IMG/VR virus record: IMGVR_UViG_3300046799_000011
Location: 1-64,000 of that record
Direction: 5' to 3' (one strand)
DNA from: a virus
DNA: 64,000 nucleotides
In this document: piece by piece, positions 4,712-50,859 of the stretch
Numbering within the stretch: position 1 is the first letter of the stretch
Layout of the letters: each line of letters starts with the position of its first letter
The notes under the pieces: generated by a model
The model's database searches: none
The model's input: the letters and a program-made list of their open reading frames with translations, nothing else
Told to the model about the DNA's origin: nothing
Translations under genes and position numbers: made by a program

Positions 4712-6481
4712 ATGGCAGTCACGGGTGCACGTCTCAACGGAGCAGTACTTCACGTCATCAAGAACGGGATGAGCCACGACGTAAGCGCGTGTGGCCGTGT
4801 GGTCATTGCGGGCAAGGGTGAGGGCATGCGTATGTGCCGTACCTGTGTCCGTGTGAATGAGGACGCTAGGCGTATCGATGACAAGCGGCGCAAGACCTCT
4901 CGTGATGCCCGTATGGCTGCAAGCATTACGGGTGAGGAAATTCAGACTGAATTCATTTCGTGGGAATTCGATTTGACTGCATTCGAATTGGCAATGACCG
5001 AAGAAAAGATTGCCAAGATCAATGCGCGGTGTGAAAAGCGCGGTATTCCTGGTGGATTGAATGTGGAATCCCATGAGGAAACGCGTAAAGAGACGAATAT
5101 CTTCGGTGTCACAACCGAATGGATTGTATTCGCTACCCGCATTACCGGAATTGCGCCTAAGCTTCCCGACTGGGAATTCGTCGCCACCCTGGATTACGAC
5201 CAGCACGCGGGTTTGATTGTGCGCACGTATCCCGGCGTCAATTCCATTGACCGTAGCGAATTGCGTGAGGGATTCTGCGACCATTGCCAGACTGACCGTT
5301 ACCGCAAGAGCACGTATGTCATGCGGAACACAAAGACTGGCGAACAAGTCCAGGTCGGCTCATCTTGCATAAAGGACTTCACAGGCTGGACAGCACTTCC
5401 CTACACGTTCGACCGCATGGCGAGTGACGTTGAGGAATTCAGTGGTGGATTTGGTGGCGGAGCACGTGACGTAACCACACTGACCGTTCTTGGCATTGCC
5501 TGGGCTTGTGTGACTGAGTACGGCTACGTCAAGTCTCGGGACATGAACTCCACTGTGGGTTATGTGCGTGACGTACTGAATCCCCCTAAGAAGATTTCTT
5601 CCGAAGATCTTGCCGAATTGCGGCGTCTTGCCGTTCATGGTGAATCCATGGAAGGAAAGGCCAAGGAATTGCAGGCATGGATTCTGTCGGATGAATTCAG
5701 CGGTAATTCCGAATACGTCCTCAACCTGAAATCCATTATCGGTGCGAAGATGGTTTCCCCTCGCAATATGGGTATCCTTTGCTCTGCTCCGCAGGCATGG
5801 GCAAAGCACTTGGAAAAGACCTTTATCAATAAGGTCGAGAAATCAGAGAATGTCAGTGCTCATGTCGGCGAAATTGGTGAGCGCTGGGAACTGCTTCTCA
5901 AGGTCGAGTCTGAGCGCTACATTGAGACTGCCTACGGTAGTTCGACGCTTTACCGCATGAGTGACGCTAGCGGTAATGTCTTCAAGTGGTTCGCGTCGAA
6001 TGACATTCTCTCGGACTACATCGGCGAGTATGTCAGCATTGCTGCGGGCATCAAGGCTCACAATGAATGGAAGGGAGTTGACGAGACTAGTTTGACCCGC
6101 TGCAAGGTAATTGGGGATATCGAAATTCCCCGCAAAATCAAGGATGCAACCGTAAAGGCAACCTTTGAGATAAAGGTTTCGGATGCGGTAATCAACATGA
6201 ATGAGGTTTACCTCATGAATGGTGAGTACTTCCGTATTCGGACCACAAAGGGAATTGCCTACGCGGTTCGCCACACTGCGGACGGCTGGACCTACGCACA
6301 GGGATCCATTCGGCAGCTTGAGCGTATGGGCACGGTCCTTACGGCCGATGACGCTGCAAGGTTCGGACATGAGCACAAGCGGTGTGTGTACTGCCACAAG
6401 AATCTGACCGACGCTCGTTCCATGGGTGTTGGCTACGGTTCCGACTGTGCAAGCGCGCATGGTCTTCCTTGGGGTGAGTAG
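4712..6481 (+). CDS. large zinc-binding early protein with C-terminal DUF6011-like domain, 589 aa
   Basis: Three Cys-rich regions are visible: CRTCV near residue 45, FCDHCQTDRYRK...GSSCIKDFTGW around residues 190-230, and a C-terminal RCVYCHKNLTDARSMG...GSDCASAHG. The last matches the small DUF6011 pattern (two CxxC-like pairs around L-T-D-x-x-S). The middle part is a long mixed region with no enzyme motif. A TTG at 4703 is an alternative start; ATG 4712 is used because the GAGAGG at 4695 is too close to the TTG. Probably a nucleic-acid-binding early protein; the role is unknown. Confidence 0.75.
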   Translation: MAVTGARLNGAVLHVIKNGMSHDVSACGRVVIAGKGEGMRMCRTCVRVNEDARRIDDKRRKTSRDARMAASITGEEIQTEFISWEFDLTAFELAMTEEKIAKINARCEKRGIPGGLNVESHEETRKETNIFGVTTEWIVFATRITGIAPKLPDWEFVATLDYDQHAGLIVRTYPGVNSIDRSELREGFCDHCQTDRYRKSTYVMRNTKTGEQVQVGSSCIKDFTGWTALPYTFDRMASDVEEFSGGFGGGARDVTTLTVLGIAWACVTEYGYVKSRDMNSTVGYVRDVLNPPKKISSEDLAELRRLAVHGESMEGKAKELQAWILSDEFSGNSEYVLNLKSIIGAKMVSPRNMGILCSAPQAWAKHLEKTFINKVEKSENVSAHVGEIGERWELLLKVESERYIETAYGSSTLYRMSDASGNVFKWFASNDILSDYIGEYVSIAAGIKAHNEWKGVDETSLTRCKVIGDIEIPRKIKDATVKATFEIKVSDAVINMNEVYLMNGEYFRIRTTKGIAYAVRHTADGWTYAQGSIRQLERMGTVLTADDAARFGHEHKRCVYCHKNLTDARSMGVGYGSDCASAHGLPWGE

Positions 6482-8977: not shown

Positions 8978-9142
8978 GTGACTGTGGAAGAGCTTATTAA
9001 ACTTCTCCAGGCAGTTCCTGAATTCATGCAGAAAACGGAAATAGCTGTATTCACCGATAAAGGTGAGCGCAGCGAATTCGCCAGTAGGCAGCTTTACATA
9101 GAGAATGGCAAGTTGACCATTCCAGTACGTAGAGTCAATTAG
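8978..9142 (+). CDS. small hypothetical protein, 54 aa
   Basis: GTG start at 8978 after GAGGGAG. The protein (TVEELIKLLQAVPEFMQKTE...) looks like a small alpha/beta fold. No family recognised. Confidence 0.65.
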   Translation: MTVEELIKLLQAVPEFMQKTEIAVFTDKGERSEFASRQLYIENGKLTIPVRRVN

Positions 9143-9153
9143 CGCTAGGTGTC

Positions 9154-9182
9154 TTGCATCCTGCATACGCTGTGTGTAGGGT
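9154..9182 (+). promoter_or_regulatory. TTGCAT-type promoter before the 9219 gene
   Basis: TTGCAT 9154-9159, 17-bp spacer, TAGGGT 9177-9182. The preceding TAGGTGTC and the downstream GTTGCTCATCTAGAGCA recur with small changes in the next gap (9591-9650), so this is a duplicated control cassette. Confidence 0.6.
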
Positions 9183-9218
9183 GTTGCTCATCTAGAGCAC
9201 TCGAAACTAGGAGTTACT

Positions 9219-9593
9219 GTGTTCCTTAGTGCCTTTATCGCCGATGAGAAGCTTACTGTTCACAAGAGCGGCTGCTCTCACGTTGTGCGTAACTGGCGTG
9301 AGTTTGGAGCGCCCATTGTCACCAACGCCCAGTCTCAGATGGGTCTCATGCGTCAGGTCAAGAACCTTGGTATCAGGGTTCAGAGTGTCCGTGTGATGCC
9401 GTGTGCTGGTCTTCCTGAGGGTTTCTGGAGTCACACTCCCTCGGGTCAGCCGTTGCGTCTCCTGGACACCGTTGAGGGCGCTCACAGGGCCACTAAGAGG
9501 GTTGAGCGCATAGCGCGTGCTGAGATGACTCACATCATTGACAACATGTCCCCCATGCTGCGAGAGATGTTCGGTCTGTCACGTCAGAGCTAG
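9219..9593 (+). CDS. hypothetical early protein, 124 aa
   Basis: GTG start at 9219 after TAGGAGTTACT. N-terminal FLSAFIADEKLTVHKSGCSH; the C-terminal half (GAHRATKRVERIARAEMTHI) is basic and helical. No family recognised. Confidence 0.7.
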   Translation: MFLSAFIADEKLTVHKSGCSHVVRNWREFGAPIVTNAQSQMGLMRQVKNLGIRVQSVRVMPCAGLPEGFWSHTPSGQPLRLLDTVEGAHRATKRVERIARAEMTHIIDNMSPMLREMFGLSRQS

Positions 9594-9598
9594 GTGTC

Positions 9599-9627
9599 TT
9601 GCATCATTCAAGACTATGTGCTTGAGT
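9599..9627 (+). promoter_or_regulatory. TTGCAT-type promoter before the 9671 gene
   Basis: TTGCAT 9599-9604, 17-bp spacer, TTGAGT 9622-9627, in the same TAGGTGTCTTGCAT context as the promoter at 9154. Confidence 0.5.
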
Positions 9628-9670
9628 GGTGTTGTTCATCTAGAACAGACAGCAACCACTAGGAGAAAAA

Positions 9671-10492: not shown

Positions 10493-10600
10493 ATGCTGTA
10501 TTGTCCCAAAAACTGTAAGTGCTCTCATGACATTGATTGCCCTGAGCACACCGAGGCAGAGCAGCACCATGACGCATCCGACCACGTAGAAGAGCGCTAG
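10493..10600 (+). CDS. 35-residue Cys/His-rich peptide
   Basis: Follows the previous stop directly. Reads MLYCPKNCKCSHDIDCPEH followed by an acidic, His-rich tail. Four Cys close together suggest a metal-binding knuckle. Confidence 0.55.
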   Translation: MLYCPKNCKCSHDIDCPEHTEAEQHHDASDHVEER

Positions 10601-10608
10601 ACAGTTTT

Positions 10609-10649
10609 ACTCATTCATTACCTACTGAGCTTGCGGGTAGTGAGTGGGT
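10609..10649 (+). other. conserved intergenic stem-loop, copy 1
   Basis: Arms ACTCATTCATTACC (10609-10622) and GGTAGTGAGTGGGT (10636-10649) pair over 14 bp when G-U pairs are allowed. It carries the family signature TTTACTCA...TGGGTATG followed by CTAGAG. See the finding on this family. Confidence 0.65.
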
Positions 10650-10694
10650 ATGACAGGCTAGAGCCAGTCAACCAGAACAAGAGGGAGTCACAAG

Positions 10695-10961
10695 ATGCGT
10701 AAGCGTACTGAGCTTGAGATCATGGTCGCGGTTGCCAACCACCCCAAGGTGCAGGCGTACCGTAAGGCAGTCCAGATCATGCATTCCCGTATGACTGCCC
10801 TGTACGGCCCTGACTATGCTGTCGTGCAGGCTCCCAAGGACAATTATGACTACGTGGAGGGTCTGTACATGACTCCCCAGCACCAGAACCTCTTTGCCTC
10901 GCTCATGCGTGGTGCTGCTAAGGTTCGGCGTGACGTTCGTAACTCCCTTCTCGCACACTAA
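10695..10961 (+). CDS. small basic hypothetical protein, 88 aa
   Basis: Preceded by GAGGGAGTCACAAG. A basic, mostly helical protein (MRKRTELEIMVAVANHPKVQ...; C-terminus GAAKVRRDVRNSLLAH). Unknown function. Confidence 0.7.
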   Translation: MRKRTELEIMVAVANHPKVQAYRKAVQIMHSRMTALYGPDYAVVQAPKDNYDYVEGLYMTPQHQNLFASLMRGAAKVRRDVRNSLLAH

Positions 10962-10974
10962 GAGGAATCGCAAA

Positions 10975-11205
10975 ATGAAAATCGTAGTGGAAGATCTGGA
11001 TAAGATCATTCGACTTACGGGCACCGAGGATTCATCCGGTTTGCGTGAGGCTCTTGCTTACGTACTGGTAAGGGTATGGGATAGGGGATATAACGACGGT
11101 TGGACTGACGCAAAAGATGACGTAGAGTCTGTATCCGTCAAATGCCCTTACACACAAAGCCACACACGCGACTGGTGCGGTTATTCGGAATGCAGGGAGT
11201 CGTAG
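10975..11205 (+). CDS. small hypothetical protein, 76 aa
   Basis: The ATG at 10975 follows AGAGGAATCGC. Contains LREALAYVLVRVWDRGYNDG, a short helix with a YNDG motif often seen in small phage proteins, and ends with C...CGYSEC. Confidence 0.65.
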   Translation: MKIVVEDLDKIIRLTGTEDSSGLREALAYVLVRVWDRGYNDGWTDAKDDVESVSVKCPYTQSHTRDWCGYSECRES

Positions 11206-11207
11206 TA

Positions 11208-11408
11208 ATGGATAAATTCCACGTTAAGTGTCATTTCGAGAATTCCGATAAGACTGTGGAGTTCTTCGGATTCAGTTTTGAAGAGCTGCAAAAAGTACTT
11301 CAGGCCAAGACAAAGCAGACACGCTTTGTCAATAAAGACTCTCGCGGAACATTCGTGATTGTCGATATGGCTAAGGTTACCCACATCGAAGCCGTTCCCT
11401 CATACTAA
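11208..11408 (+). CDS. small hypothetical protein, 66 aa
   Basis: ATG at 11208 after AGGGAGTCGTAGTA. Reads MDKFHVKCHFENSDKTVEFF..., a likely beta-rich fold with a central helix. Unknown function. Confidence 0.65.
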   Translation: MDKFHVKCHFENSDKTVEFFGFSFEELQKVLQAKTKQTRFVNKDSRGTFVIVDMAKVTHIEAVPSY

Positions 11409-11422
11409 GGAGAAATAGCATA

Positions 11423-12007
11423 ATGATTACTCTCGCCAAGGAAGATGGACCTGCCGATCTTACCGGGGTTACTCACCTCAGTATCGGTGTCTCATGGGAT
11501 CCTACTTCGGGATCTTCTGGTGGTCTTGCGGGTGTTCTTAAGCGTAAGCTCGGAACTGACCTGGACCTGATCGCCATTCTTTGCCAGGGTGGGGAGCCTG
11601 TGAGGCTTGCTGGGCTGGATTCCCTGGATCCTGTTGGCAACGGCGCTATCGTCCACAGTGGGGACAATCAGACCGGTAACGGTGTTGGTGATGACGAGAC
11701 TGTGACTGTTGACTTCTCTCGTGTTCCGCGCAATATCACGAGCGTTGTCTTTGTTGCTGCTGCCCACAAGAAGGGTAGCGCATTCTCTAAGGCACGAAAC
11801 GTCAGTTTCAAGGTCTATGACGCTACGGGAGGTTCTAGTCAGCAGGTGGCCGATATCTGGCCTTCTCTGATGGCTACAGGCAATGCGAATGGCGTTGCTA
11901 AGGCTGTCCGCAACGGTGATTCCTGGTCCCTTGAGGTTATCAACCACATGGGCAAGACCAAGCAGGGTGACGAAATTTCCCTCTTGCGCTTTGCCAAGGG
12001 TCTGTAG
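11423..12007 (+). CDS. terD: TerD-family protein, 194 aa
   Basis: Matches the TerD/CABP fold over its whole length: LSIGVSWD, DLDLIAILC, the acidic stretch SGDNQTGNGVGDDETV that binds calcium in this family, and SVVFVAAAHKKG. The length fits the family. TerD proteins are linked to tellurite resistance, membrane stress and phage resistance in bacteria, and are abundant in Streptomyces; Ter genes also occur on some of their phages. Preceded by AAGGAGAAATAGCATA. It is alone here, without TerB/C/Z partners, so a role in modulating host stress or defence is inferred. Confidence 0.9.
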   Translation: MITLAKEDGPADLTGVTHLSIGVSWDPTSGSSGGLAGVLKRKLGTDLDLIAILCQGGEPVRLAGLDSLDPVGNGAIVHSGDNQTGNGVGDDETVTVDFSRVPRNITSVVFVAAAHKKGSAFSKARNVSFKVYDATGGSSQQVADIWPSLMATGNANGVAKAVRNGDSWSLEVINHMGKTKQGDEISLLRFAKGL

Positions 12008-12048
12008 TACCTTCTAGACAACGCAGTACACACAGAAAAGAGCTAGAC

Positions 12049-12246
12049 ATGTTCAAGGTCACTGACTCGCACTACGTCGCCACTGTGGGCGTTCTCAAGG
12101 GCAAGGAGAAGGTAGCGTTTGGTCTTACCATTCCGCTAACTAAGCCTGCTGCTGTGGGATATATCAAGGGTCTTCCTGGTGGGCGTATAAACGGGAACTA
12201 CCGAGTCATCAAGCGTACTACTGCCCGTAAGCTCGGTCTGATCTAA
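12049..12246 (+). CDS. small basic hypothetical protein, 65 aa
   Basis: Preceded by AAAGAGCTAGAC. A basic beta-rich protein (MFKVTDSHYVATVGVLKGKE...; C-terminus IKRTTARKLGLI). Unknown function. Confidence 0.65.
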   Translation: MFKVTDSHYVATVGVLKGKEKVAFGLTIPLTKPAAVGYIKGLPGGRINGNYRVIKRTTARKLGLI

Positions 12247-12254
12247 GGTTCTTT

Positions 12255-12295
12255 ACTCATCACTATCCATTTCCATTCCATGGATAGCGGTGGGT
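12255..12295 (+). other. conserved intergenic stem-loop, copy 2
   Basis: Arms ACTCATCACTATCCA (12255-12269) and TGGATAGCGGTGGGT (12281-12295) pair over 15 positions with one mismatch. Signature TTTACTCA...TGGGTATGG followed by CTAGAAAGG. Confidence 0.65.
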
Positions 12296-12320
12296 ATGGA
12301 ATCCTAGAAAGGGATCCGTA

Positions 12321-12506
12321 ATGAAATTGCCACGACTTGAAACAACAAGTAATGCCGCTCTTTCTGATCGTATGAGTTCTGTATTCGAGAATGGGTATGG
12401 AAATGAAGGGCCAGTAGCTAAAGGGTGTTGTCTGCTCCTGGCTATTGCTGTAATCCTCGTAATCCTCAGTCCTGTAATAGCAATTGGTATATGGATTGCG
12501 CTCTAG
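12321..12506 (+). CDS. small single-pass membrane protein, 61 aa
   Basis: Soluble N-terminal half, then CCLLLAIAVILVILSPVIAI as one transmembrane helix to the C-terminus. Preceded by AGAAAGGGATCCGTA. Could be a small host-membrane modifier; unknown. Confidence 0.7.
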   Translation: MKLPRLETTSNAALSDRMSSVFENGYGNEGPVAKGCCLLLAIAVILVILSPVIAIGIWIAL

Positions 12507-12514
12507 TGAGTTTT

Positions 12515-12542
12515 AATCATTACTCAGAAATGGGTAGTGGTT
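12515..12542 (+). other. conserved intergenic stem-loop, copy 3
   Basis: Arms AATCATTACTCA (12515-12526) and TGGGTAGTGGTT (12531-12542), 12 bp with G-U pairs, closed by a GAAA tetraloop. Signature TTTAATCA...TGGTTATG followed by CTAGAA. Confidence 0.7.
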
Positions 12543-12586
12543 ATGATTTCCTAGAATGGGAGTCACCATTACAAAGGGAGAAAAAA

Positions 12587-12931
12587 GTGAACGGTAAGAC
12601 TGTTGTTGCAAGTCTTCTCGCAATTGTCCTTACCTATGGAGCTGTAGAGGGTGGTATTGCGGCATTCGACGCTACGCATCCTGAGCGCGATGTCACTGTT
12701 ACCGTTACCGATAAGGTCCGTACTGGGGGTGACAATTCAAAGTACCTGATCTTTACGGATCGCGGTACGTTTGAGAATATTGACAGCATGGTCAAGGGTA
12801 AGTACAACTCTTCCGACCTTTACGGTCAGATCAAGGTCAAGCACACCTATACGTTTCATGTCCGGGGTGTTCGCAGTGAGTTCTGGTCTATGTACCCGAA
12901 CGTTATCACTGCCAAGGAGCTTGACAAGTAA
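12587..12931 (+). CDS. membrane-anchored or secreted protein, 114 aa
   Basis: GTG start at 12587 with GGGAGAAAAAA upstream. NGKTVVASLLAIVLTYGAVE forms an N-terminal hydrophobic segment; the rest is a beta-rich exported domain (VTVTVTDKVRTGGDNSKYLI...) that resembles the small beta-sandwich proteins common in actinobacteriophages. Unknown role. Confidence 0.7.
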   Translation: MNGKTVVASLLAIVLTYGAVEGGIAAFDATHPERDVTVTVTDKVRTGGDNSKYLIFTDRGTFENIDSMVKGKYNSSDLYGQIKVKHTYTFHVRGVRSEFWSMYPNVITAKELDK

Positions 12932-12945
12932 TATCTAGTGCGCTT

Positions 12946-12977
12946 ATATCATTCTCATCTATTGGTGAGGGTGGTAT
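12946..12977 (+). other. conserved intergenic stem-loop, copy 4
   Basis: Arms ATATCATTCTCATC (12946-12959) and GGTGAGGGTGGTAT (12964-12977) pair over 14 bp with a TATT loop. Preceded by CTAGTGCGCTT, also found before copy 5, and followed by CTAGCG. Confidence 0.65.
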
Positions 12978-13002
12978 TGGAATACTAGCGAAGGGCTCAG
13001 TA

Positions 13003-13266
13003 ATGAAATTCCTTGATGATGTTCCGCGAGAAGAGCGCTGTTATGTGGTATTCCGGGGAACGCCCAGTGTTTATTACATAACTGCGGATAACGGAATTGA
13101 CGCGCTTGATGCGGCCCAAGATTTGGCACGTACAAAGACTGAGAATACGGGAGAGAAGTACACAGTAATGTGTATTCCGCAAGACTGTTTGCAATTCTCT
13201 CTTACTGCCGTAAATCACGGTGTTGTATTCCACGCGACAAACAAGCTGGAAGAGGATAGCGAGTAA
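13003..13266 (+). CDS. small hypothetical protein, 87 aa
   Basis: MKFLDDVPREERCYVVFRG... with an alpha/beta pattern. The TAA stop shares its final A with the next ATG (TAATG), so the two are coupled. Unknown function. Confidence 0.7.
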   Translation: MKFLDDVPREERCYVVFRGTPSVYYITADNGIDALDAAQDLARTKTENTGEKYTVMCIPQDCLQFSLTAVNHGVVFHATNKLEEDSE

Positions 13267-13751
13267 TGTTCGAAAACTGGTATCTGTGCGTGCTGTGCAA
13301 TGACGTTATCGAAAAGCGTCAAGGTATTTGGTGGGATGAATCAAACAATGCGGTTGGATTTGGATTCCATAAGCATATTCCCACTGATCCCGAGCAGTAT
13401 TACTCCCATAAGTATGGTGGTGATATCCGCACCGAGATTCTTTATACCTGGAATCTCACCAGTAATTATGATGACTCTGTAGGCGAGACAGACACATTCG
13501 GGTATTACTCGGTGCTCTATGATTTCCATGCAATTCTGGAAGTCGATTCCGAGGGATTCGTATTCTCTTACCATTATGATTCCCGCGAGGCTACCATTAA
13601 CGCGTGGAATAACAAGGTAGACGATTACTGGGAATGGTCAAAGGAAAACGGGGAATGCCAGTGCGGTTCTGTTTCCTGTGATTACTATGAGGACAATCAA
13701 GACAGGCTCGATAAGGAGCTGGAATACGAACGTAGGGACCTAGACAGCTAG
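13266..13751 (+). CDS. acidic, Tyr-rich protein with CxxC, 161 aa
   Basis: N-terminal YLCVLCNDVIEK and a C-terminal CQCGSVSCDYYED can form a split metal site. The middle is rich in Tyr and Asp. Acidic overall, as often seen for phage DNA-mimic or inhibitor proteins, but nothing specific is recognised. Confidence 0.7.
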   Translation: MFENWYLCVLCNDVIEKRQGIWWDESNNAVGFGFHKHIPTDPEQYYSHKYGGDIRTEILYTWNLTSNYDDSVGETDTFGYYSVLYDFHAILEVDSEGFVFSYHYDSREATINAWNNKVDDYWEWSKENGECQCGSVSCDYYEDNQDRLDKELEYERRDLDS

Positions 13752-13774
13752 TCCGTTCTCTCGCGTCAAGCCGC

Positions 13775-13804
13775 TTGACTTGGCTCGGGAGTGTGCACTA
13801 GAGT
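13775..13804 (+). promoter_or_regulatory. HrdB-like promoter before the 13838 gene
   Basis: TTGACT 13775-13780, 18-bp spacer, TAGAGT 13799-13804. The -35 is inside a small palindrome GTCAAG-CCG-CTTGAC, a possible operator. Confidence 0.7.
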
Positions 13805-13837
13805 CGTACCAACAGCACAACAGAGGGAGCGCGCAAC

Positions 13838-14242
13838 ATGATGGAGCGTCCTACCGGCTCATTCCTGGAGAATCGAGAGGCTTATTACGCATGGTGGGCT
13901 GAACTGGCCCGTATCGCTAAGAAGCGTTATCACGCTCTGCCTGAGGACAAGGGTATTCCCGTTCCGTATACGGCTTGCCGTACGCGTTACAAATATGTGA
14001 ACGGCGCTGGTGTCTCCGCTAGCTCACGTGTGGTGTCTCACCGCTACGCGGATGAGGGAGACAAGGGCAAGAGCCTGCGACGCGAGATCAAGCGCGTAGA
14101 ACGTGCTCAGTGGCTCTCTGAGTGGCAGGAAGAGCAAGAGAGTCAGGAAGTGTACGACACTGCCGAATGGTTCGCAGCATGGGCGTTTTGGTGGGAGGAT
14201 GACGCAACGTGCGGTAACCCGTACTGTGAAGTGTGCGAGTAA
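13838..14242 (+). CDS. basic hypothetical protein, 134 aa
   Basis: Tandem ATGs at 13838/13841 after AGAGGGAGCGCG. The N-terminus is aromatic (ENREAYYAWWAELARIAKK), the middle is basic, and the C-terminus ends in CGNPYCEVCE, a CxxxxC-xx-C knuckle. Unknown function. Confidence 0.7.
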   Translation: MMERPTGSFLENREAYYAWWAELARIAKKRYHALPEDKGIPVPYTACRTRYKYVNGAGVSASSRVVSHRYADEGDKGKSLRREIKRVERAQWLSEWQEEQESQEVYDTAEWFAAWAFWWEDDATCGNPYCEVCE

Positions 14243-14261
14243 AAGATCTTGAGCTAGTGGC

Positions 14262-14291
14262 TTGACAGGGTAGATGTTGGTTCGCTAACGT
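14262..14291 (+). promoter_or_regulatory. HrdB-like promoter before the 14340 gene
   Basis: TTGACA 14262-14267, 18-bp spacer, TAACGT 14286-14291. Same -10 as the two dyad promoters at 8673 and 8893. Confidence 0.65.
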
Positions 14292-14339
14292 CTTCCTTGT
14301 GAGGTTCCTAACCGAGGGACTGAGGGAAAGAGGGCAGTA

Positions 14340-14657
14340 ATGGAACCGAGTGTAGTGGTTAACACAACGACGTATGACACGTTCACTGTTTCCACCATCG
14401 TTACCCGCTCGCATTTCGAGACTCGCATTTTCAGTGAGGATGGCGAGGCTATTCCTGAGGGCATAAAGACTGCTATCAAGGGTCGCCTTACGTGGACAAG
14501 CCAGGACTATGACAACGTCATAGTTGGCCAGGACCGAGAGTCTGTGGAGTCTTACTCCCACTCTGACGCCGAAGATGTGCATACGGGTATGAGTGTCCTG
14601 GTGACCCACTTCCTCAACACGCACACCCGCACAATCACTTACGTTCCGAACAAGTAG
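14340..14657 (+). CDS. hypothetical early protein, 105 aa
   Basis: MEPSVVVNTTTYDTFTVSTI..., beta-rich, no Cys knuckle or enzyme motif. Preceded by GAGGGAAAGAGGGCAGTA. Flanked by its own promoter on the left and that of the 14739 gene on the right. Confidence 0.7.
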   Translation: MEPSVVVNTTTYDTFTVSTIVTRSHFETRIFSEDGEAIPEGIKTAIKGRLTWTSQDYDNVIVGQDRESVESYSHSDAEDVHTGMSVLVTHFLNTHTRTITYVPNK

Positions 14658-14662
14658 TGAGC

Positions 14663-14692
14663 TTGCATCGTCTGAGACTCTGTGCTTAGATG
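14663..14692 (+). promoter_or_regulatory. TTGCAT-type promoter before the 14739 gene
   Basis: TTGCAT 14663-14668, 18-bp spacer, TAGATG 14687-14692. Third example of the TTGCAT -35 variant in this region. Confidence 0.55.
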
Positions 14693-14738
14693 GTGCTAGC
14701 TTCCTAACAACGGGAAGCATGTACAGGAGGTAAGCAGA

Positions 14739-15608
14739 ATGGCTGCTCGTAAGAAGACTCAGGTTCCGCCGCTGGACATTGCCAAGCTCGGTGAGATTTT
14801 CGCCAAGCTTGTTGAGTTCGGCGCGACTGAGGATTCCCCTGTCACTGTCGGTGAGATGAACGACGAAATGGCGGAAAACACTTTCGACAACCTGAATATC
14901 CTTGCCGACGCTGAGCTTATCGGTATGGGTGAGGGAACGAACGCGGGTAAGCTCTGGGTTGCCATCCCGGATGTCAGTTCCGAGAATGCTGGGGAATTCT
15001 TCAATGAGGCTTTCGCCAACATGTCGGCTGATGTTCTGATGGCACTTGGTAAGCCTGCGGAGGCACCCAAGAAGCTGACTGCCAAGGAACTGGAGTACAA
15101 GGAGCGTACGGAGTACAACGCGCGGGTTGCTGAGTCGCAGGAAGATGGAGCCCAGCACAGGCACCCCATGCCGGACGCTGTGAAGCCTGCTGAGACTCCC
15201 GTAATTGCTGCGGACGGTACGGCCGTTACGGTTCCCGTTGACCCTGAGAACGACCCTAAGGGACCGCGTAGGGAGCTTGACGCAAGCAAGGGTGAGAAGC
15301 TGATCGGTGAGGACGTGATCAAGGTCAAGGCTACGGCCAAGCCTGAGCGACTTCCTGAGATTGATGGTCTCGATCAGTTCCTTGATGACGAGACTGGTGC
15401 AATGGTCTATGAGTCTCGGATTGAGAAGGTTGGTCTCTGGCTTGATGAGCCCGAGAGTGTTCCTGCCCTTCCCGAGGGAGTCAACCCCAACACGTGGAAT
15501 GCCGCTCACACGGCCGCTACTCAGACCGCGCGGGATTGGTACCTCGCACGTGTGAAGACCCAGCAGGAAGAGCACAAGATCAACGAGGGTGCCCCCGCTC
15601 CGTTCTAG
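14739..15608 (+). CDS. acidic early protein of unknown function, 289 aa
   Basis: Preceded by ACAGGAGGTAAGCAGA, the best ribosome binding site of the region, so probably highly expressed. After a basic start (MAARKKTQVPP) comes a predicted helical N-terminal domain up to about residue 115, then a Lys/Glu-rich linker, then a Pro/Asp/Glu-rich C-terminal half. No enzyme motif. Could be an abundant early DNA- or RNA-polymerase-associated factor; this is speculation from expression signals only. Confidence 0.75.
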   Translation: MAARKKTQVPPLDIAKLGEIFAKLVEFGATEDSPVTVGEMNDEMAENTFDNLNILADAELIGMGEGTNAGKLWVAIPDVSSENAGEFFNEAFANMSADVLMALGKPAEAPKKLTAKELEYKERTEYNARVAESQEDGAQHRHPMPDAVKPAETPVIAADGTAVTVPVDPENDPKGPRRELDASKGEKLIGEDVIKVKATAKPERLPEIDGLDQFLDDETGAMVYESRIEKVGLWLDEPESVPALPEGVNPNTWNAAHTAATQTARDWYLARVKTQQEEHKINEGAPAPF

Positions 15609-15619
15609 TCGAGTGAGTT

Positions 15620-15645
15620 AGACTCCGGTAGAAATATCGGAGTCT
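15620..15645 (+). terminator. hairpin after the 14739 gene
   Basis: 8-bp inverted repeat AGACTCCG (15620-15627) / CGGAGTCT (15638-15645), followed by TTCTCT. Weak terminator or attenuator. Confidence 0.5.
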
Positions 15646-15667
15646 TTCTCTCCCAACTAGAAAGGCT

Positions 15668-15859
15668 ATGAAAATGGCTAAGGTTATTGCTGGTGTAGTC
15701 GCTACGCTGATTCTCTGCATTCTTGTGGGAATCGTGCTGGTTGCATTCGGTAAGTTCCTGCTAGGTCTGGCATTCGTAGTCGGAATGCTGCTTATCACTG
15801 GTCTGGTAATTGCCGGTATCTTCGGTAAGAAGTTTGCGGAATTCTGGAAGTCGTTCTAA
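15668..15859 (+). CDS. two-helix membrane protein, 63 aa
   Basis: Start at ATG 15668 (or 15674) after AGAAAGGCT. Two hydrophobic segments, VIAGVVATLILCILVGIVLV and LLGLAFVVGMLLITGLVIAG, separated by a short loop and followed by a basic tail. A holin-like topology, but the location among early genes argues for another membrane role. Confidence 0.7.
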   Translation: MKMAKVIAGVVATLILCILVGIVLVAFGKFLLGLAFVVGMLLITGLVIAGIFGKKFAEFWKSF

Positions 15860-15875
15860 TAAGTTAGTGCGCTTT

Positions 15876-15907
15876 AATCAGACTCCCCTTAATTGGGGAG
15901 TTTGGTT
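15876..15907 (+). other. conserved intergenic stem-loop, copy 5
   Basis: Arms AATCAGACTCCCC (15876-15888) and GGGGAGTTTGGTT (15895-15907), 13 positions with one mismatch. Signature GTTAGTGCGCTTTAATCA and TGGTTATGG followed by CTACTAAA. Confidence 0.7.
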
Positions 15908-15935
15908 ATGGTCTACTAAACAGAAAGAGACACAA

Positions 15936-16139
15936 ATGAACGGTGTTCCTGGTCCAATAGTTGTTCTGTTCATCCTCATATTCTGCGGTTTCGGTATGTG
16001 CATGGGTTTGCTTTTTGGGGGTCAGCTAGGAAAGACAGATCAGTTCTCCAAGGACTGTAAGGCTATGGCGCATGGTGCAGTGGACAAGAGCGCTGATAGT
16101 ATCTGTGTCAAGAATGGCAAGATTCTCTTTCACCAGTAA
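15936..16139 (+). CDS. small membrane-anchored protein, 67 aa
   Basis: N-terminal hydrophobic segment IVVLFILIFCGFGMCMGLLF followed by a soluble tail with two Cys. Start at 15936 after AGAAAGAGACAC. Unknown function. Confidence 0.65.
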   Translation: MNGVPGPIVVLFILIFCGFGMCMGLLFGGQLGKTDQFSKDCKAMAHGAVDKSADSICVKNGKILFHQ

Positions 16140-16148
16140 GGTAGAGAA

Positions 16149-16364
16149 ATGCGTGCAGTTGTCATTACCTATATGTGGTGGGGAATGCCGCGAGTAAAGG
16201 TGTTCTCTCACGAATACAAGAGGTTGACTGATGAAAGACTAGTCAAAAAGGTAAAGGGTTGGGCGCGCTGCAATATCTCTAAGCTTTATACCCCGGAGAA
16301 TTGCTCCATTACGTTTTACAGTGACATTCTCGATGTAACTACAGCGGTAAATATTCCGCTGTAA
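16149..16364 (+). CDS. small basic hypothetical protein, 71 aa
   Basis: Preceded by AAGGTAGAGAA. A basic protein (MRAVVITYMWWGMPRVKVFS...). Last plus-strand gene before a strong bidirectional terminator. Confidence 0.65.
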   Translation: MRAVVITYMWWGMPRVKVFSHEYKRLTDERLVKKVKGWARCNISKLYTPENCSITFYSDILDVTTAVNIPL

Positions 16365-16408
16365 ATAAGAAAGCCTCCATACCAATTAAGGTATGGAGGC
16401 TTTCTTAT
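16365..16408. terminator. strong bidirectional terminator
   Basis: Perfect 19-bp inverted repeat with arms 16365-16383 and 16390-16408 and an AATTAA loop, flanked by A and T tracts. It separates the plus-strand early region from the minus-strand genes. The gap 16409-16537 holds a TTGACA at 16420 with no good -10 and several short inverted repeats; no gene seen. Confidence 0.9.
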
Positions 16409-16537
16409 TATGTACTGACTTGACAGGGACACGTCTAGAAGCTCTGTAAGCCTCTCTAACAAGATCCTTTATCGTCTTGACCTCCTAGGTCACCTTGAGG
16501 CTGTGAGGCTCTTAGAACGTCGTTCTGTACGTTCTAG

Positions 16538-16699
16538 CTACCCTCCTGCCCCCCGGTTGAACTCATGGGTATGGATGGCTATCGCTTGAATCTGCTTGCG
16601 CGCGGTTGCCTTGCTCTGTGGATGCTTGCTAAAGGTCTTGTCAGTCCCTTTATGAGCTGCCTTGTATCCTCCGCGTACTTTACGAATTTCGTAGGGCAC
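16538..16699 (-). CDS. small basic phage protein, 53 aa
   Basis: The GTG at 16699 is favoured by GAGGGAGTCTAGG upstream; an upstream ATG at 16753 would overlap the preceding gene. Reads PYEIRKVRGGYKAAHKGTDK, then TFSKHPQSKATARKQIQAI, the pattern of a widespread small basic phage protein (GYKV...G..FSK.P.SK..A..Q..AI) of unknown function. Confidence 0.7.
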   Translation of the reverse strand: MPYEIRKVRGGYKAAHKGTDKTFSKHPQSKATARKQIQAIAIHTHEFNRGAGG

Positions 16700-16700
16700 C

Positions 16701-16886
16701 CTAGACTCCCTCTGTATGAGCCTGTAAGAGGCTGGCAGGAGTAGACTGGTCACTTGCTACCGTCTCACCCTTGAAGGCGCACACACCGAGCGCTAGGACC
16801 GTTGTCAACAGGGTAGTAACAGCCATACTGAGATATGTCTTTCTGTCCCATAAACCTTTTGGTTGTGGGGGGATTTGATTTGTCAT
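16701..16886 (-). CDS. small single-pass membrane protein, 61 aa
   Basis: Preceded by CAGGAGAATTAA. The segment YLSMAVTTLLTTVLALGVCA is one transmembrane helix with an N-terminal cytoplasmic tail. Unknown function. Confidence 0.65.
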   Translation of the reverse strand: MTNQIPPQPKGLWDRKTYLSMAVTTLLTTVLALGVCAFKGETVASDQSTPASLLQAHTEGV

Positions 16887-16909
16887 TTAATTCTCCTGAA
16901 AATGAAAAC

Positions 16910-16953
16910 AAAAAAGCCAATACCCTTAGTATATTGCTACTAAGGGTATTGGC
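16910..16953 (-). terminator. rho-independent terminator (minus strand)
   Basis: Perfect 16-bp inverted repeat, arms 16916-16931 and 16938-16953, followed on the minus strand by six T residues. Ends the transcript of the 16971-17207 gene. Confidence 0.9.
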
Positions 16954-16970
16954 AGTAATACTATGAAGTT

Positions 16971-17207
16971 CTAGAAAGAGTCAGGGGAATTGAAAGCCTC
17001 CACAGGCTCATCGTAGGTGATGGTAACGAGAGAATCCTTGTCCAGGATGAGACCCTTCTTCTCTCCACCCATCAGTTCAGCAGTAACAACGTAGTCGCCA
17101 TGGTCTTCCGCAGCATCGCTCAGCGCCCAGAAGGTGCGTCCGAGTGAATCCGTGACCAGGTCACCGGTACGGATGTTCGCGGGAGACTGGTTGTTGTACG
17201 TAGTCAT
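16971..17207 (-). CDS. small hypothetical protein, 78 aa
   Basis: Preceded by AAAGGCACAAA. A beta-rich, SH3-like looking protein (IRTGDLVTDSLGRTFWALSD, then KDSLVTITYDEPVEAF). Such small single-domain proteins often bind other proteins; no family recognised. Confidence 0.7.
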   Translation of the reverse strand: MTTYNNQSPANIRTGDLVTDSLGRTFWALSDAAEDHGDYVVTAELMGGEKKGLILDKDSLVTITYDEPVEAFNSPDSF

Positions 17208-17250
17208 TTTGTGCCTTTCTTATATTACTCACTGACTAATTGCCAGCTTT

Positions 17251-17282
17251 AGCCACACCCGATATTTCTATCGGATATGACT
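17251..17282 (-). other. conserved intergenic stem-loop, copy 6 (minus strand)
   Basis: On the minus strand, arms AGTCATATCCGATA and TATCGGGTGTGGCT pair over 14 bp with G-U pairs and a GAAA tetraloop. It lies between the 17290 and 16971 genes. A TTGACA 17 bp upstream of TAGAAA also overlaps it, so it may coincide with a promoter. Confidence 0.7.
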
Positions 17283-17289
17283 AGAACTG

Positions 17290-17472
17290 TCAATTCTTGA
17301 TATCGTCCTTGGCAGTGAAACCCACCGCAACAAGACTCCGAAGATCCCAAGACAGGTACACAACAGCCAGAACTGCCAGTAGCCACCAGTGAAATGGGAT
17401 GGCTACTATCAGTAGAGCCACGTCAATTGCAATTTCCGCGTAAAGAGCCTCACGCGAAGCAACCTTAGACAC
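17290..17472 (-). CDS. two-helix membrane protein, 60 aa
   Basis: Hydrophobic segments EIAIDVALLIVAIPFHWWLL and AVLAVVYLSWDL form one long or two short transmembrane helices. Preceded by AAAGGCTATAAAGTG. Unknown function. Confidence 0.65.
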   Translation of the reverse strand: MSKVASREALYAEIAIDVALLIVAIPFHWWLLAVLAVVYLSWDLRSLVAVGFTAKDDIKN

Positions 17473-17490
17473 TTTATAGCCTTTCGTTAG

Positions 17491-17766
17491 TTATGTGTAC
17501 TGCATGTCATAGCGCAGATTATTAAAGTACGCTTGTCCTGTATTTACCGCAATTCGTAGACTGCTCTCATCCAAAAACATGGAGTAGTCACGTTTATTAG
17601 TAGTACTGGCTTGATGGCTTTGTAGGAACCTCAACCGAAACATTTGGTAAAGCTCGTTGGTTGAATTTATACTGCGCTTAGACTTCATCCTATTCTCTAG
17701 CGCTCTTTGTGAAATTCGCCAGTGAGCAACTAGACTACCCTCGGAGTATATCCATAGAGTATACAT
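17491..17766 (-). CDS. hypothetical protein, 91 aa
   Basis: The ATG at 17766 is chosen for GGAAAGGGCTAGC upstream; a further ATG at 17802 lies in the stem-loop and has none. Begins MYTLWIYSEGSLVAHWRISQ. Unknown function. Confidence 0.55.
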   Translation of the reverse strand: MYTLWIYSEGSLVAHWRISQRALENRMKSKRSINSTNELYQMFRLRFLQSHQASTTNKRDYSMFLDESSLRIAVNTGQAYFNNLRYDMQYT

Positions 17767-17788
17767 GCTAGCCCTTTCCGCTAACCAT

Positions 17789-17818
17789 AGCCACCCCCAC
17801 ATTTCTATGGGAATGACT
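17789..17818 (-). other. conserved intergenic stem-loop, copy 7 (minus strand)
   Basis: On the minus strand, AGTCATTCCCATA and TGTGGGGGTGGCT pair over 13 bp with G-U pairs and a GAAA tetraloop, preceded by CTTT and followed by ATGG, the family signature. Confidence 0.75.
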
Positions 17819-17829
17819 AAAGCTATCGG

Positions 17830-18363
17830 CTAAGCCGTTGCAGTGAAGACATACATTTCATCTGCATAGTTATTCGTAGCGAAATCCCCTCGGATTTCAT
17901 CGTACGACTCTTCCCAGTCGATGCAAATCCAGGAAGGGACGTTAGCCATTTCCTCTGTACCTTCCGCGTGATCCTTGGCGAATTCCGCACCATCACGGTA
18001 TACGCCGTAATACCCTTCCTTGTAGCCATACCCATTGCGAGTACGGGTAAAGGGGGCAGAAGTCCAGCCGAAAAGCTCACCATAAGAGATGACAGCGCCC
18101 GCATTCTCGGGCTCACTCACAAGAGCCTCAAAGACAGCGGAAAACGTCTCAGCGTCTTTGATCTCAGCAAATACACTGTCCCACTTGGTAAAGATGCGCA
18201 CACCGCTGATAGTCCATCCCGCATTCTCCATACGAGTTACCAGCGACTCAACGATAGCGGAATCGTGCGACTCGTCAAGGTCAAAGGAACGCTTACGGAT
18301 ATTCGCGCCCGTTCCTTCCTGCATAGAGAAAGAAAGAAACTTGAATTCAGCACCGTAACCCAT
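17830..18363 (-). CDS. hypothetical protein with ArdA-like C-terminal pattern, 177 aa
   Basis: Acidic and aromatic. The C-terminal part (GAEFAKDHAEGTEEMANVP, then SWICIDWEESYDEIRGDF and MYVF) resembles the end of ArdA antirestriction proteins, which mimic B-form DNA and inhibit type I restriction enzymes. The N-terminal half (ENAGWTISGVRIFTKWDSVF) does not obviously match ArdA, so the assignment is tentative. Preceded by AGAAGGGTAATCCT. Confidence 0.55.
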   Translation of the reverse strand: MGYGAEFKFLSFSMQEGTGANIRKRSFDLDESHDSAIVESLVTRMENAGWTISGVRIFTKWDSVFAEIKDAETFSAVFEALVSEPENAGAVISYGELFGWTSAPFTRTRNGYGYKEGYYGVYRDGAEFAKDHAEGTEEMANVPSWICIDWEESYDEIRGDFATNNYADEMYVFTATA

Positions 18364-18392
18364 AGGATTACCCTTCTATTGCTCCCGAACGG

Positions 18393-18438
18393 TTTAGGGA
18401 GACATAGAAACTCTCTGATTGCCCAGAGAATCCCTAAA
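18393..18438 (-). other. two-tier inverted repeat in the leader of the 17830 gene
   Basis: Outer arms TTTAGGGA (18393-18400) / TCCCTAAA (18431-18438) enclose inner arms ACTCTCT (18410-18416) / AGAGAAT (18425-18431). On the minus strand it is preceded by TTAGTGCGATTTA, close to the TTAGTGCGCTTTA found before stem-loop copy 5. Confidence 0.45.
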
Positions 18439-18443
18439 TCGCA

Positions 18444-18701
18444 CTAATCCCGGTAAGTCAGATCAAACCATGAGCCTATGGGCCCATCATAGTGCCGGAC
18501 ATTGAATGCCCCCACCTTATCGGCGTAAGGCTTTCCGCCAAACCACTTGATCATAACCTTTGCGCCAAACAGCGCAGAGTAGTTATAGATCAAGTCGAGA
18601 AAGAGTTCTTCAGTAACAGCCTCAAAGCTATCACCCTGGAATATCTCAGGAAAGCCTACAGGCTTACCATTTTCGAATTCCTGCATTACCGCAGTAGGCA
18701 C
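18444..18701 (-). CDS. small hypothetical protein, 85 aa
   Basis: GTG start at 18701 after CTAGGGGAAATC. Mixed alpha/beta sequence (EAVTEELFLDLIYNYSALFG, KVMIKWFGGKPYADK). Unknown function. Confidence 0.65.
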   Translation of the reverse strand: MPTAVMQEFENGKPVGFPEIFQGDSFEAVTEELFLDLIYNYSALFGAKVMIKWFGGKPYADKVGAFNVRHYDGPIGSWFDLTYRD

Positions 18702-50002: not shown

Positions 50003-50279
50003 CGGGCACCCACTTAATAGTAGTAACTTCCTTAGGCTCTACCTGAACAGCCTCTACATAGCCACGGGTATCTTCCCAACAGTCCTGACCCTCTTGATTC
50101 TCTGTGGCAGGATCCATGTAGTCAACCGCGTAATGCTTACCATCATCCGCTAGGAATATAAGCTCACGCCAGGTATACCAGCGATGCTTATCCAGTTCCC
50201 GATTGGCGATGGCTTCCCAGGGAAGTTCATACTCCTCTTCCAGCTCTTCAACAGAGAACTTACGAATTACCTTAGCCAA
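49962..50279 (-). CDS. acidic hypothetical protein, 105 aa
   Basis: TTG start at 50279, TAA of the upstream gene overlapping. Begins AKVIRKFSVEELEEEYELPW; charged, Trp-rich. Unknown. Confidence 0.6.
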   Translation of the reverse strand: MAKVIRKFSVEELEEEYELPWEAIANRELDKHRWYTWRELIFLADDGKHYAVDYMDPATENQEGQDCWEDTRGYVEAVQVEPKEVTTIKWVPVVVSDQSVADKRI

Positions 50280-50451
50280 AATTCTCTACCTCTTCCAATA
50301 CTTGGTCAACAATCCTGAATAACTTTACAATATCTCCGCAATAAGGACTGCTAGCAGTTGCGGTAACACTTCGTCTAGTCTTATGAAATCTCCAGACACC
50401 AGCGCTATCAACGCTAGCGAATTCTGGGAAAGCAATACCATGTGCGACCAT
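50272..50451 (-). CDS. small hypothetical protein, 59 aa
   Basis: AGAGGAGAACAG before the ATG at 50451. Reads MVAHGIAFPEFASVDSAGVW, then RRSVTATASSPYCGDIVKL. Overlaps the next start by 8 nt. Confidence 0.6.
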   Translation of the reverse strand: MVAHGIAFPEFASVDSAGVWRFHKTRRSVTATASSPYCGDIVKLFRIVDQVLEEVENFG

Positions 50452-50473
50452 CTGTTCTCCTCTAATAATCCAT

Positions 50474-50503
50474 AGCCACTCTCCTCGTTAAAGGAGAATG
50501 ACT
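50474..50503 (-). other. conserved intergenic stem-loop, copy 8 (minus strand)
   Basis: On the minus strand AGTCATTCTCC and GGAGAGTGGCT pair over 11 bp around an eight-base loop, with CTTT before and ATGG after. It is the only copy of the family found outside the early region and follows the lipoprotein gene. Confidence 0.65.
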
Positions 50504-50511
50504 AAAGACAA

Positions 50512-50859
50512 TTAGCGACGCTTACGAGTAGTAGACTTCCAACCCGGAACCGGCACAGCCTTGCGCGGAGTAGTGGTTGTGGGCTTGTACGTCTTGGGCT
50601 TAACCATAGGCTTCGGGGTGGCAACCTTGATGGTGTGCTGAGTGCCGTGAGGCTTGTACTGGTAGGTATGAGTAACGTAGTACTTGTGGGTAACACGAAC
50701 CGTCTTGGGGTGCGTGTAGTAGTGATAGTGGTGCGCGGTGTCATAGTAACCATACTGAACCACGTAGTCATACTGCGGAGTAGCGGGACTAGACCCACAT
50801 GCAACAGCACCAGCAATAATTGCCGTGGCAATACCCGCAGCAGCAAAAACCTTACGCAA
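50512..50859 (-). CDS. Tyr/His/Thr-rich lipoprotein, 115 aa
   Basis: Signal peptide MRKVFAAAGIATAIIAGAVA with lipobox AVAC (Cys21). The mature part is Tyr/His-rich (YGYYDTAHHYHYYTHP) then Pro/Thr/Lys-rich and very basic at the end. A cell-envelope protein; surface adhesion, superinfection exclusion or metal binding are possible. Preceded by AAAGGAGAGTACG. Confidence 0.75.
   Translation of the reverse strand: MRKVFAAAGIATAIIAGAVACGSSPATPQYDYVVQYGYYDTAHHYHYYTHPKTVRVTHKYYVTHTYQYKPHGTQHTIKVATPKPMVKPKTYKPTTTTPRKAVPVPGWKSTTRKRR

What the first reader, a model, noticed from the sequence alone, without database searches (positions are those of the whole stretch)
10609..17818. Eight intergenic stem-loops with compensatory base changes, on both strands
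Copies at 10609, 12255, 12515, 12946 and 15876 (+) and at 17251, 17789 and 50474 (-) share the frame TTTAxTCA - variable stem - TGGx'TATGG, followed by a CTAGA-like word in the plus-strand copies. The base x pairs with x': A-T (12515, 15876), C-G (10609, 12255), G-C (17251, 17789, 50474). In 12946 the neighbouring pair also switches from A-T to T-A. Stems run 11-15 bp with frequent G-U pairs, which favours RNA over DNA as the functional form. Three copies end in a GAAA tetraloop. I do not know a described element of this form. It could be a processing or stability site, a translational switch, or a binding site for a phage RNA-binding protein such as one of the small zinc ribbons.
Basis: seen in the sequence. 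Interest (0 to 1): 0.85.

Follow-up and report, generated by a model that had tools for sequence, protein, structure and literature searches.

The report
Phage mRNA-cutting hairpins between genes
These Streptomyces-type phages carry up to a dozen or so copies of a precisely shaped RNA hairpin in the gaps between genes; it resembles the sites where coliphages T7 and T3 have their messenger RNA cut by the host enzyme RNase III, and its many natural variants show which features matter.

Summary
All eight hairpins exist. The window holds at least 12 copies, and 93 distinct copies occur in 13 related phages plus two fragments (own record, BRock, GiJojo, LuckySocke, Alone3, pSt2308 and IMG/VR relatives). 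Covariation is very strong (255 double-change cells versus 71±7 shuffled).

Some positions are almost never Watson-Crick paired: UxU or CxA at column 14 (92/93), a U·G or G·U wobble at column 18 (88/93), a mostly non-Watson-Crick column 21, and at least one mismatch in columns 8-11 (92/93). The upstream gene's stop codon usually lies in the helix base. A Shine-Dalgarno sequence and start codon follow.

The same core, xUCR…YGGx' with a U·G wobble, is in all five annotated T3 RNase III sites and four of five early T7 sites, at the same junction type. Best reading: mRNA-processing sites cut once by host RNase III (no RNase III domain was found in the phages). The cut itself is inferred. A 3-codon mini-ORF in most copies is the main unexplained extra.

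The parts
10594..10664 (+). Upstream ORF (10493-10600) ends in the 5' outer arm; next gene starts 10695. Leader can form a second hairpin TGACAGGC-TAGA-GCCAGTCA
   Evidence: E 8.8e-14
12240..12310 (+). Stop TAA of 12049-12246 in the 5' outer arm; next gene 12321
   Evidence: E 2.6e-10
12500..12557 (+). Stop TAG of 12321-12506 in the 5' outer arm; next gene start GTG about 12587
   Evidence: E 2.8e-16
12932..12991 (+). Follows the stop at 12931; next gene 13003. Core switched to UUAUA/UAUUG
   Evidence: E 8.4e-15
15861..15922 (+). Outer helix TTAGT/ACTAA; next gene about 15936. Cut predicted by T7 register near 15912/15913 (inference, +/-3 nt)
   Evidence: E 1.7e-17; register
17236..17297 (-). 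Next gene 16971-17207(-)
   Evidence: E 1.1e-11
17774..17833 (-). Upstream gene 17830-18363(-) ends in it; next gene start about 17766(-)
   Evidence: E 1.3e-16
18391..18450 (-). New copy, wobble flipped to G·U (TTTAGGGA/TTTCTATG). Upstream gene 18444-18701(-) ends in it; next gene 17830-18363(-)
   Evidence: E 2.6e-10
50459..50518 (-). Stop of 50512-50859(-) in the 5' outer arm; next gene 50272-50451(-). Copies in the matching gap of GiJojo (70811) and LuckySocke (69700)
   Evidence: E 3e-13
9587..9646 (+). New copy with a 4/4 internal loop (TTGCATCA/TGGTGTTG class). Stop of 9219-9593 in the 5' arm
   Evidence: (E 6.5e-8)
9142..9198 (+). New, weaker copy with a 4/4 internal loop
   Evidence: (E 0.13)
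14651..14710 (+). New copy (TTGCATCG/TGGTGCTAG class) between 14340-14657 and 14739-15608
   Evidence: (E 4.4e-6), fold
13745..13804 (+). Marginal relative: CTAGT/ACTAG outer helix, TTGACT in the 3' arm and TAGAGT 18 nt downstream; not counted as a copy
   Evidence: (E 0.12)

Best explanation
Each element is a cis-acting mRNA-processing hairpin of the T7/T3 type. Transcripts running through two neighbouring genes fold it in the gap: an outer helix that usually contains the upstream stop codon, an irregular zone, a core with wobble pairs, and an upper stem of at least about 11-13 layers with a small loop. The host's RNase III is proposed to bind the upper stem and core and to cut once in the irregular lower zone on the 3' strand. 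The downstream gene would then get a short 5' leader with an exposed Shine-Dalgarno sequence, and the upstream mRNA would end in a protective hairpin. The near-obligate mismatches would keep the cut single-stranded, as the internal loop of T7 R1.1 does. Shown here: the family, its structure, its near-obligate non-Watson-Crick positions, its junction placement, the core shared with T3/T7 sites, and no RNase III domain found in the phages. Inferred: cleavage, the enzyme, the cut position, and the effect on expression.
For: Structure: alignment A3 has 255 double-change cells versus 71±7 in shuffles, covariation 0.559 versus 0.187, and at most 0.15 when slid. In 93 copies column 17/77 always pairs, with three main types; 14/80 is non-Watson-Crick in 92; 18/76 is a wobble in 88, including 9 flips to G·U. 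Column 21 is non-Watson-Crick in 75% while columns 24 and 26 are 100% Watson-Crick. Length: 24 layers at least, median 25; 92/93 have a mismatch in columns 8-11; 51 of 93 have tetraloops, 31 of these GNRA. Two copies have an exact 4/4 internal loop; S. [quoted passage not shown] T3: all five GenBank-annotated RNase III sites carry GGUC[A/G]...[U/C]GGCC with U·G at the position matching column 18, and the next gene starts 20-37 nt after each site. T7 R0.5, R1, R1.1 and R1.3 have it too, often with a second U·G three pairs up, as here. T7 R1.1 (cut at 5887) matures and protects T7 mRNA; forcing full pairing gives double cuts; a 12-bp stem with a tetraloop is near the minimum (PMC8708148). Placement: upstream stop at columns 5-7 in 57/93; Shine-Dalgarno plus start within 75 nt in 91/93. 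No RNase III domain match (PF14622) in 13 phage records.
Against: No cleavage data exist. The covariance model does not recognise T7 or T3 sites above noise, so they share a core and a layout, not a family. Below the core the two kinds differ: UxU then CU/GG here, four Watson-Crick pairs then an internal loop in T7. E. coli RNase III targets are said not to share a strong consensus sequence (PMC8708148), so the tight constraint on CUUUA/UAUGG, the frequent AUG with in-frame stop, and the pyrimidine/purine arm bias (81:6) are not predicted by RNase III alone. T7 R0.3 and the later T7 sites fit less well.
Confidence: 0.6

Rival explanations
1. Translational relay: the hairpin base holds the upstream stop codon and its 3' arm holds a closed 3-codon mini-ORF (AUG-N-N-stop) directly before the next gene's Shine-Dalgarno. 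A ribosome ending the upstream gene opens the lower helix, restarts at the mini-ORF and hands over to the next gene.
For: 66/93 copies have ATG/TTG/GTG plus a stop within 6 codons; 63 of the 82 copies with a start codon have exactly 3 codons. The stop survives in 15/15 copies whose pair 4/90 is broken. Upstream stop fixed at columns 5-7 in 57/93. UxU and U·G lie opposite the U and G of the AUG. A 2-codon minigene in the axe-txe leader changes translation of txe in cis (PMC8708949).
Against: 27 of 93 copies lack the mini-ORF while keeping the structure, and three replace UxU/AUG by CxA with AAA or AAG. The Shine-Dalgarno-like purine bias is just as strong in copies without a start codon, so it is not there for the mini-ORF. 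It does not explain the length floor or the column 18 wobble.
Confidence: 0.17
2. Binding site for a phage-encoded RNA-binding protein that represses, activates or protects the early mRNAs.
For: Near-obligate non-Watson-Crick positions within a covarying helix look like shape recognition. A TROVE/Ro-like protein is found in 12 of 13 records.
Against: No specific candidate is tied to the hairpin; the same core occurs in T3 and T7 RNase III sites, where the host enzyme suffices.
Confidence: 0.13
3. Promoter-associated or transcription-control element: the loop carries TTGAC as a -35 box in a subset.
For: 14/93 inner regions hold TTGAC versus 1.8 expected; those copies have longer leaders (median 36 versus 15 nt, p=3e-6).
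Against: Only 15% of copies; no TANNNT -10 at the usual spacing in most of them by inspection; compensatory changes and wobbles are RNA features. At most a secondary function of a subset.
Confidence: 0.06
4. Intrinsic terminator or attenuator.
For: Stable hairpins at gene ends.
Against: No U run: the three bases after the element are 12% T (33/279). A conventional hairpin with a T-rich tail sits elsewhere, at 16361.
Confidence: 0.02

Closest known systems
RNase III processing sites of coliphages T7 and T3 (R0.3, R0.5, R1, R1.1, R1.3)
   Same: Irregular ~40-60 nt hairpin in the gap between co-directional genes, the next gene starting 20-37 nt later in T3; xUCR...YGGx' core with a U·G wobble, often a second U·G three pairs higher; an irregular zone below a 9-13 bp upper stem; several per genome.
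   Different: Here x covaries freely, one UxU or CxA mismatch replaces the upper edge of the internal loop, the upper stem is longer, the outer helix is often CTAG/CTAG holding the upstream stop codon, and most copies carry AUG-N-N-stop. The covariance model does not join them.
rpsO-pnp intergenic hairpin of Streptomyces coelicolor
   Same: Intergenic hairpin in a likely host genus, cut by RNase III at a [4/4] internal loop (PMC10126417); copies 9142 and 9587 fold with a 4/4 loop.
   Different: A single host site; no sequence relation was tested.
ESAS/SAS of cluster K mycobacteriophages
   Same: Repeated inverted-repeat element tied to the starts of particular genes in an actinophage group, function unknown (PMC3203893).
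   Different: ESAS has a 17-bp inverted repeat of conserved sequence next to a conserved SAS at the start codon; here the stem sequence differs between copies and only structure plus a small core is kept.
Two-codon minigene in the axe-txe leader
   Same: Very short ORF before a gene, acting in cis (PMC8708949).
   Different: That leader has no strong secondary structure; here the mini-ORF lies in a conserved hairpin and is missing from about 30% of copies.

Membership tests
T7/T3-type RNase III mRNA-processing site | Intergenic hairpin between a stop codon and the next gene's start | tested here: met
   57/93 upstream stops at columns 5-7; 91/93 with Shine-Dalgarno plus start within 75 nt; T3 layout from GenBank
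T7/T3-type RNase III mRNA-processing site | Upper stem of about 12 bp or more closed by a small loop | tested here: met
   sharp floor of 11 layers from column 17 to the loop, 24 in all; loops mostly 4-6 nt
T7/T3-type RNase III mRNA-processing site | Internal loop or irregular zone holding the scissile bond | tested here: inconclusive
   an irregular zone is present in 92/93, 4/4 loop in two copies; the bond itself was not mapped
T7/T3-type RNase III mRNA-processing site | xUCR...YGGx' core with U·G wobble as in T3/T7 sites | tested here: met
   88/93 wobble at 18/76 here; 5/5 T3 and 4/5 early T7 sites
T7/T3-type RNase III mRNA-processing site | Recognised by the same covariance model (common family) | tested here: not met
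   R2 finds no T7 or T3 site above noise
T7/T3-type RNase III mRNA-processing site | Cut by RNase III in vivo or in vitro | not testable with these tools
   no RNA data
ESAS of cluster K | Conserved 17-bp inverted-repeat sequence | tested here: not met
   inner stem sequence differs between copies, only pairing kept
Intrinsic terminator | U run directly after the stem | tested here: not met
   12% T in the three bases after the element
Any Rfam 15 family | Score at or above gathering threshold | tested here: not met
   no match in the window; relaxed search gives only sub-threshold matches
Translated minigene | Start codon and in-frame stop in all copies, with start-linked Shine-Dalgarno | tested here: not met
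   66/93 copies; purine bias equal in copies without start

The most novel reading that the evidence does not exclude
One hairpin couples mRNA processing and translation: the upstream gene's stop codon sits in its base, a closed AUG-N-N-stop mini-ORF lies in its 3' arm at the foot of the core, and ribosome traffic decides whether the site is open to translation or folded for cutting. This would be an RNA junction module, for which I found no precedent, that the phages repeat about 5-12 times per genome.
Probability: 0.17. Interest if true: 0.8.

Novelty: new variant of a known kind. Interest (0 to 1): 0.6.

Why it matters
How RNase III chooses targets is described as poorly understood and without a strong consensus (PMC8708148). 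Here are 93 natural variants, in a phage group far from T7, that keep the same wobble core and a strict length floor while the rest of the helix drifts freely. If they are RNase III sites, they turn that question into a direct test: columns 14, 18, 21 and 8-11 should set affinity and single-strand cutting. They would also extend T7-style operon processing to actinophages, and they already give a covariance model that finds such sites in this group.

Tried and rejected
T-box-like UGGN: rejected, because UGG itself covaries to CGG, AGG, TAG or TCT. Phage-encoded RNase III: PF14622 absent from 13 records, found in the control genomes. Mini-ORF Shine-Dalgarno: the arm-swap control was invalid (the reverse complement of a Y/R hairpin is again Y/R); the reversed-arm and no-start comparisons replace it. 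Mobile element: copies share structure, not stem sequence, so recent transposition was rejected. Nucleotide BLAST for near relatives: none. Bacterial genomes: 26 distinct pattern hits, none in actinobacteria by title, 4/26 pairing at x-x' and 1 with a stem, so chance. Scanning T7 with the covariance model found no R site.
Full report
WHERE. The window is the first 64 kb of a 111,669-base IMG/VR virus record. Its DNA polymerase is 55-56% identical to those of Streptomyces phages BRock, GiJojo, LuckySocke, Alone3 and pSt2308 and 57-83% to further IMG/VR relatives. No nucleotide-level relative of the 9-19 kb region is in the phage collection.

CHECKING THE OBSERVATION. All eight hairpins are present with the stated pairs. 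Nine copies fold at -24 to -31 kcal/mol, z -4.7 to -8.7. A frame scan scores all eight at 22 or more, against at most 20 in five Markov-shuffled genomes. In a hand-chosen alignment of 20 copies (A1), 18 pairs show changes on both sides, with 81 double-change cells against 23.7±3.9 in shuffles, and slid registers give at most 0.149 against 0.534. A1 was picked partly by pairing, so the less biased test matters. A pattern scan of IMG/VR fixed only CTTTA.TCA...TGG.TATGG...CTA and left x, x' and the stem free. Of 51 distinct hits, those with a real stem lie, with two chance exceptions (L061, L025), in records that also encode the DNA polymerase, and there x-x' is Watson-Crick in 8 of 8; among the 41 low-stem hits it is 13. 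A second scan (TCG/CGG) behaved alike: 11 of 12 high-stem hits against 3 of 12. In bacterial genomes it is 4 of 26.

THE FAMILY. Model R1 found about 75 copies in relatives and only weak hits in 0.59 Mb of unrelated viral DNA (best E 0.096). R2 raised this to 93 distinct sense-strand copies, 5-10 per genome. The phage genomes were read in pieces; pSt2308 and Alone3 only in part. The window's own copies rise from 8 to at least 12 when filters are off.

ANATOMY (n = 93; 5' columns as in A1, 3' columns in A3 numbering). Outer helix 4-7/87-90: columns 5-7 are 98-100% paired, with covariation. Zone 8-11/83-86: partly paired; 92/93 have at least one mismatch. Column 12/82 is mostly C-G; 13/81 is U·G in 83; 14/80 is UxU in 89 and CxA in 3, Watson-Crick once. 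Columns 15-17 always pair, 17 with three main types. Column 18/76 is U·G in 79 and G·U in 9, Watson-Crick twice. Columns 19-20 are Watson-Crick in 91-95%. Column 21 is non-Watson-Crick in 75%. Columns 24 and 26 are Watson-Crick in 100%. Helix length is 24 layers at least, median 25; 51 of 93 have tetraloops, 31 of these GNRA. The 5' arm is 26% purine, the 3' arm 72% (81 copies against 6).

CONTEXT. The upstream gene's stop codon falls exactly at columns 5-7 in 57/93 (the next commonest offsets have 7 each), and 91/93 have a Shine-Dalgarno-led start within 75 nt. These ORF calls are mechanical. One copy sits in the matching gap in this record, GiJojo and LuckySocke.

LINK TO RNASE III SITES. 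T3's GenBank record annotates five RNase III sites. All five contain GGUC[A/G]-stem-[U/C]GGCC, with U·G where our column 18 lies; T7 R0.5, R1, R1.1 and R1.3 do too. T7 coordinates other than R1.1 (5887, PMC8708148) are from my own knowledge. The T7 and T3 sites are related to each other, so they are not independent confirmations. In T7 R1.1 the cut lies 7 nt after the wobble G; that register puts the cut here after column 83, inside the irregular zone, for example near 15912/15913. This is a prediction. Published facts fit: full pairing of R1.1 turns one cut into two, and a 12-bp stem with tetraloop is near the lower limit (PMC8708148); the S. coelicolor enzyme cuts at a [4/4] loop of an intergenic hairpin (PMC10126417). 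The phages show no RNase III domain (PF14622), so the host enzyme would act. The covariance model does not find T7 or T3 sites, so I claim 'works like', not 'is a member of one RNA family'.

THE MINI-ORF. Columns 79-81 read ATG in 73 of 93, and 66 copies have a start and a stop within 6 codons, 63 of them after exactly three codons. In all 15 copies where pair 4/90 is broken and columns 88-89 are TA, the stop is kept; local purine content is 61%, so this is suggestive, not proof. Against it, copies without a start keep the structure and the purine bias. I keep it as the main rival and as an unexplained extra.

A SUBSET. Fourteen copies have TTGAC in the loop region (1.8 expected) and longer leaders. 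By eye several of these leaders can form a second hairpin that shares the 3' CTAG. This was not tested further.

LITERATURE. The BRock genome paper mentions no such element (PMC7453282), and a search for actinophage RNase III processing found nothing relevant. The library holds open-licence papers only, so absence there is weak evidence of novelty.

VERDICT. A real, abundant, strongly constrained RNA element; most likely an RNase III processing site of T7/T3 style in actinophages. New variant of a known kind; interest 0.6.

Noticed in passing
14 copies, e.g. L133:11130-11192(-), L018:9784-9847(-), L009:9589-9653(+): TTGAC in the hairpin loop region far above chance, with longer leaders; possibly a -35 box overlapping the hairpin.
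   Followed up: partly
window 10650-10680; downstream flanks of L014:28045, L018:9784, L123:14335: A second small hairpin (e.g. TTGGCTA-GAGG-TAGCCAA) shares the 3' CTAG of the main hairpin, so the two may exclude each other.
   Followed up: no
window 13745-13804: A promoter-like TTGACT-N18-TAGAGT lies inside a hairpin with CTAGT/ACTAG ends, resembling the element.
   Followed up: no
G000 103934-104122(-) and 11 relatives: A TROVE/Ro-like RNA-binding protein is found in 12 of 13 records; G001 shows none.
   Followed up: partly
window 16361-16411: Near-perfect 20-bp hairpin with T-rich tail between converging genes, probably a bidirectional terminator.
   Followed up: no
L009:8301-8364(+) and L111:9413-9472(-): The hairpin's start codon is in frame with the next gene and no stop intervenes, so annotated starts there may be too far downstream.
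   Followed up: no
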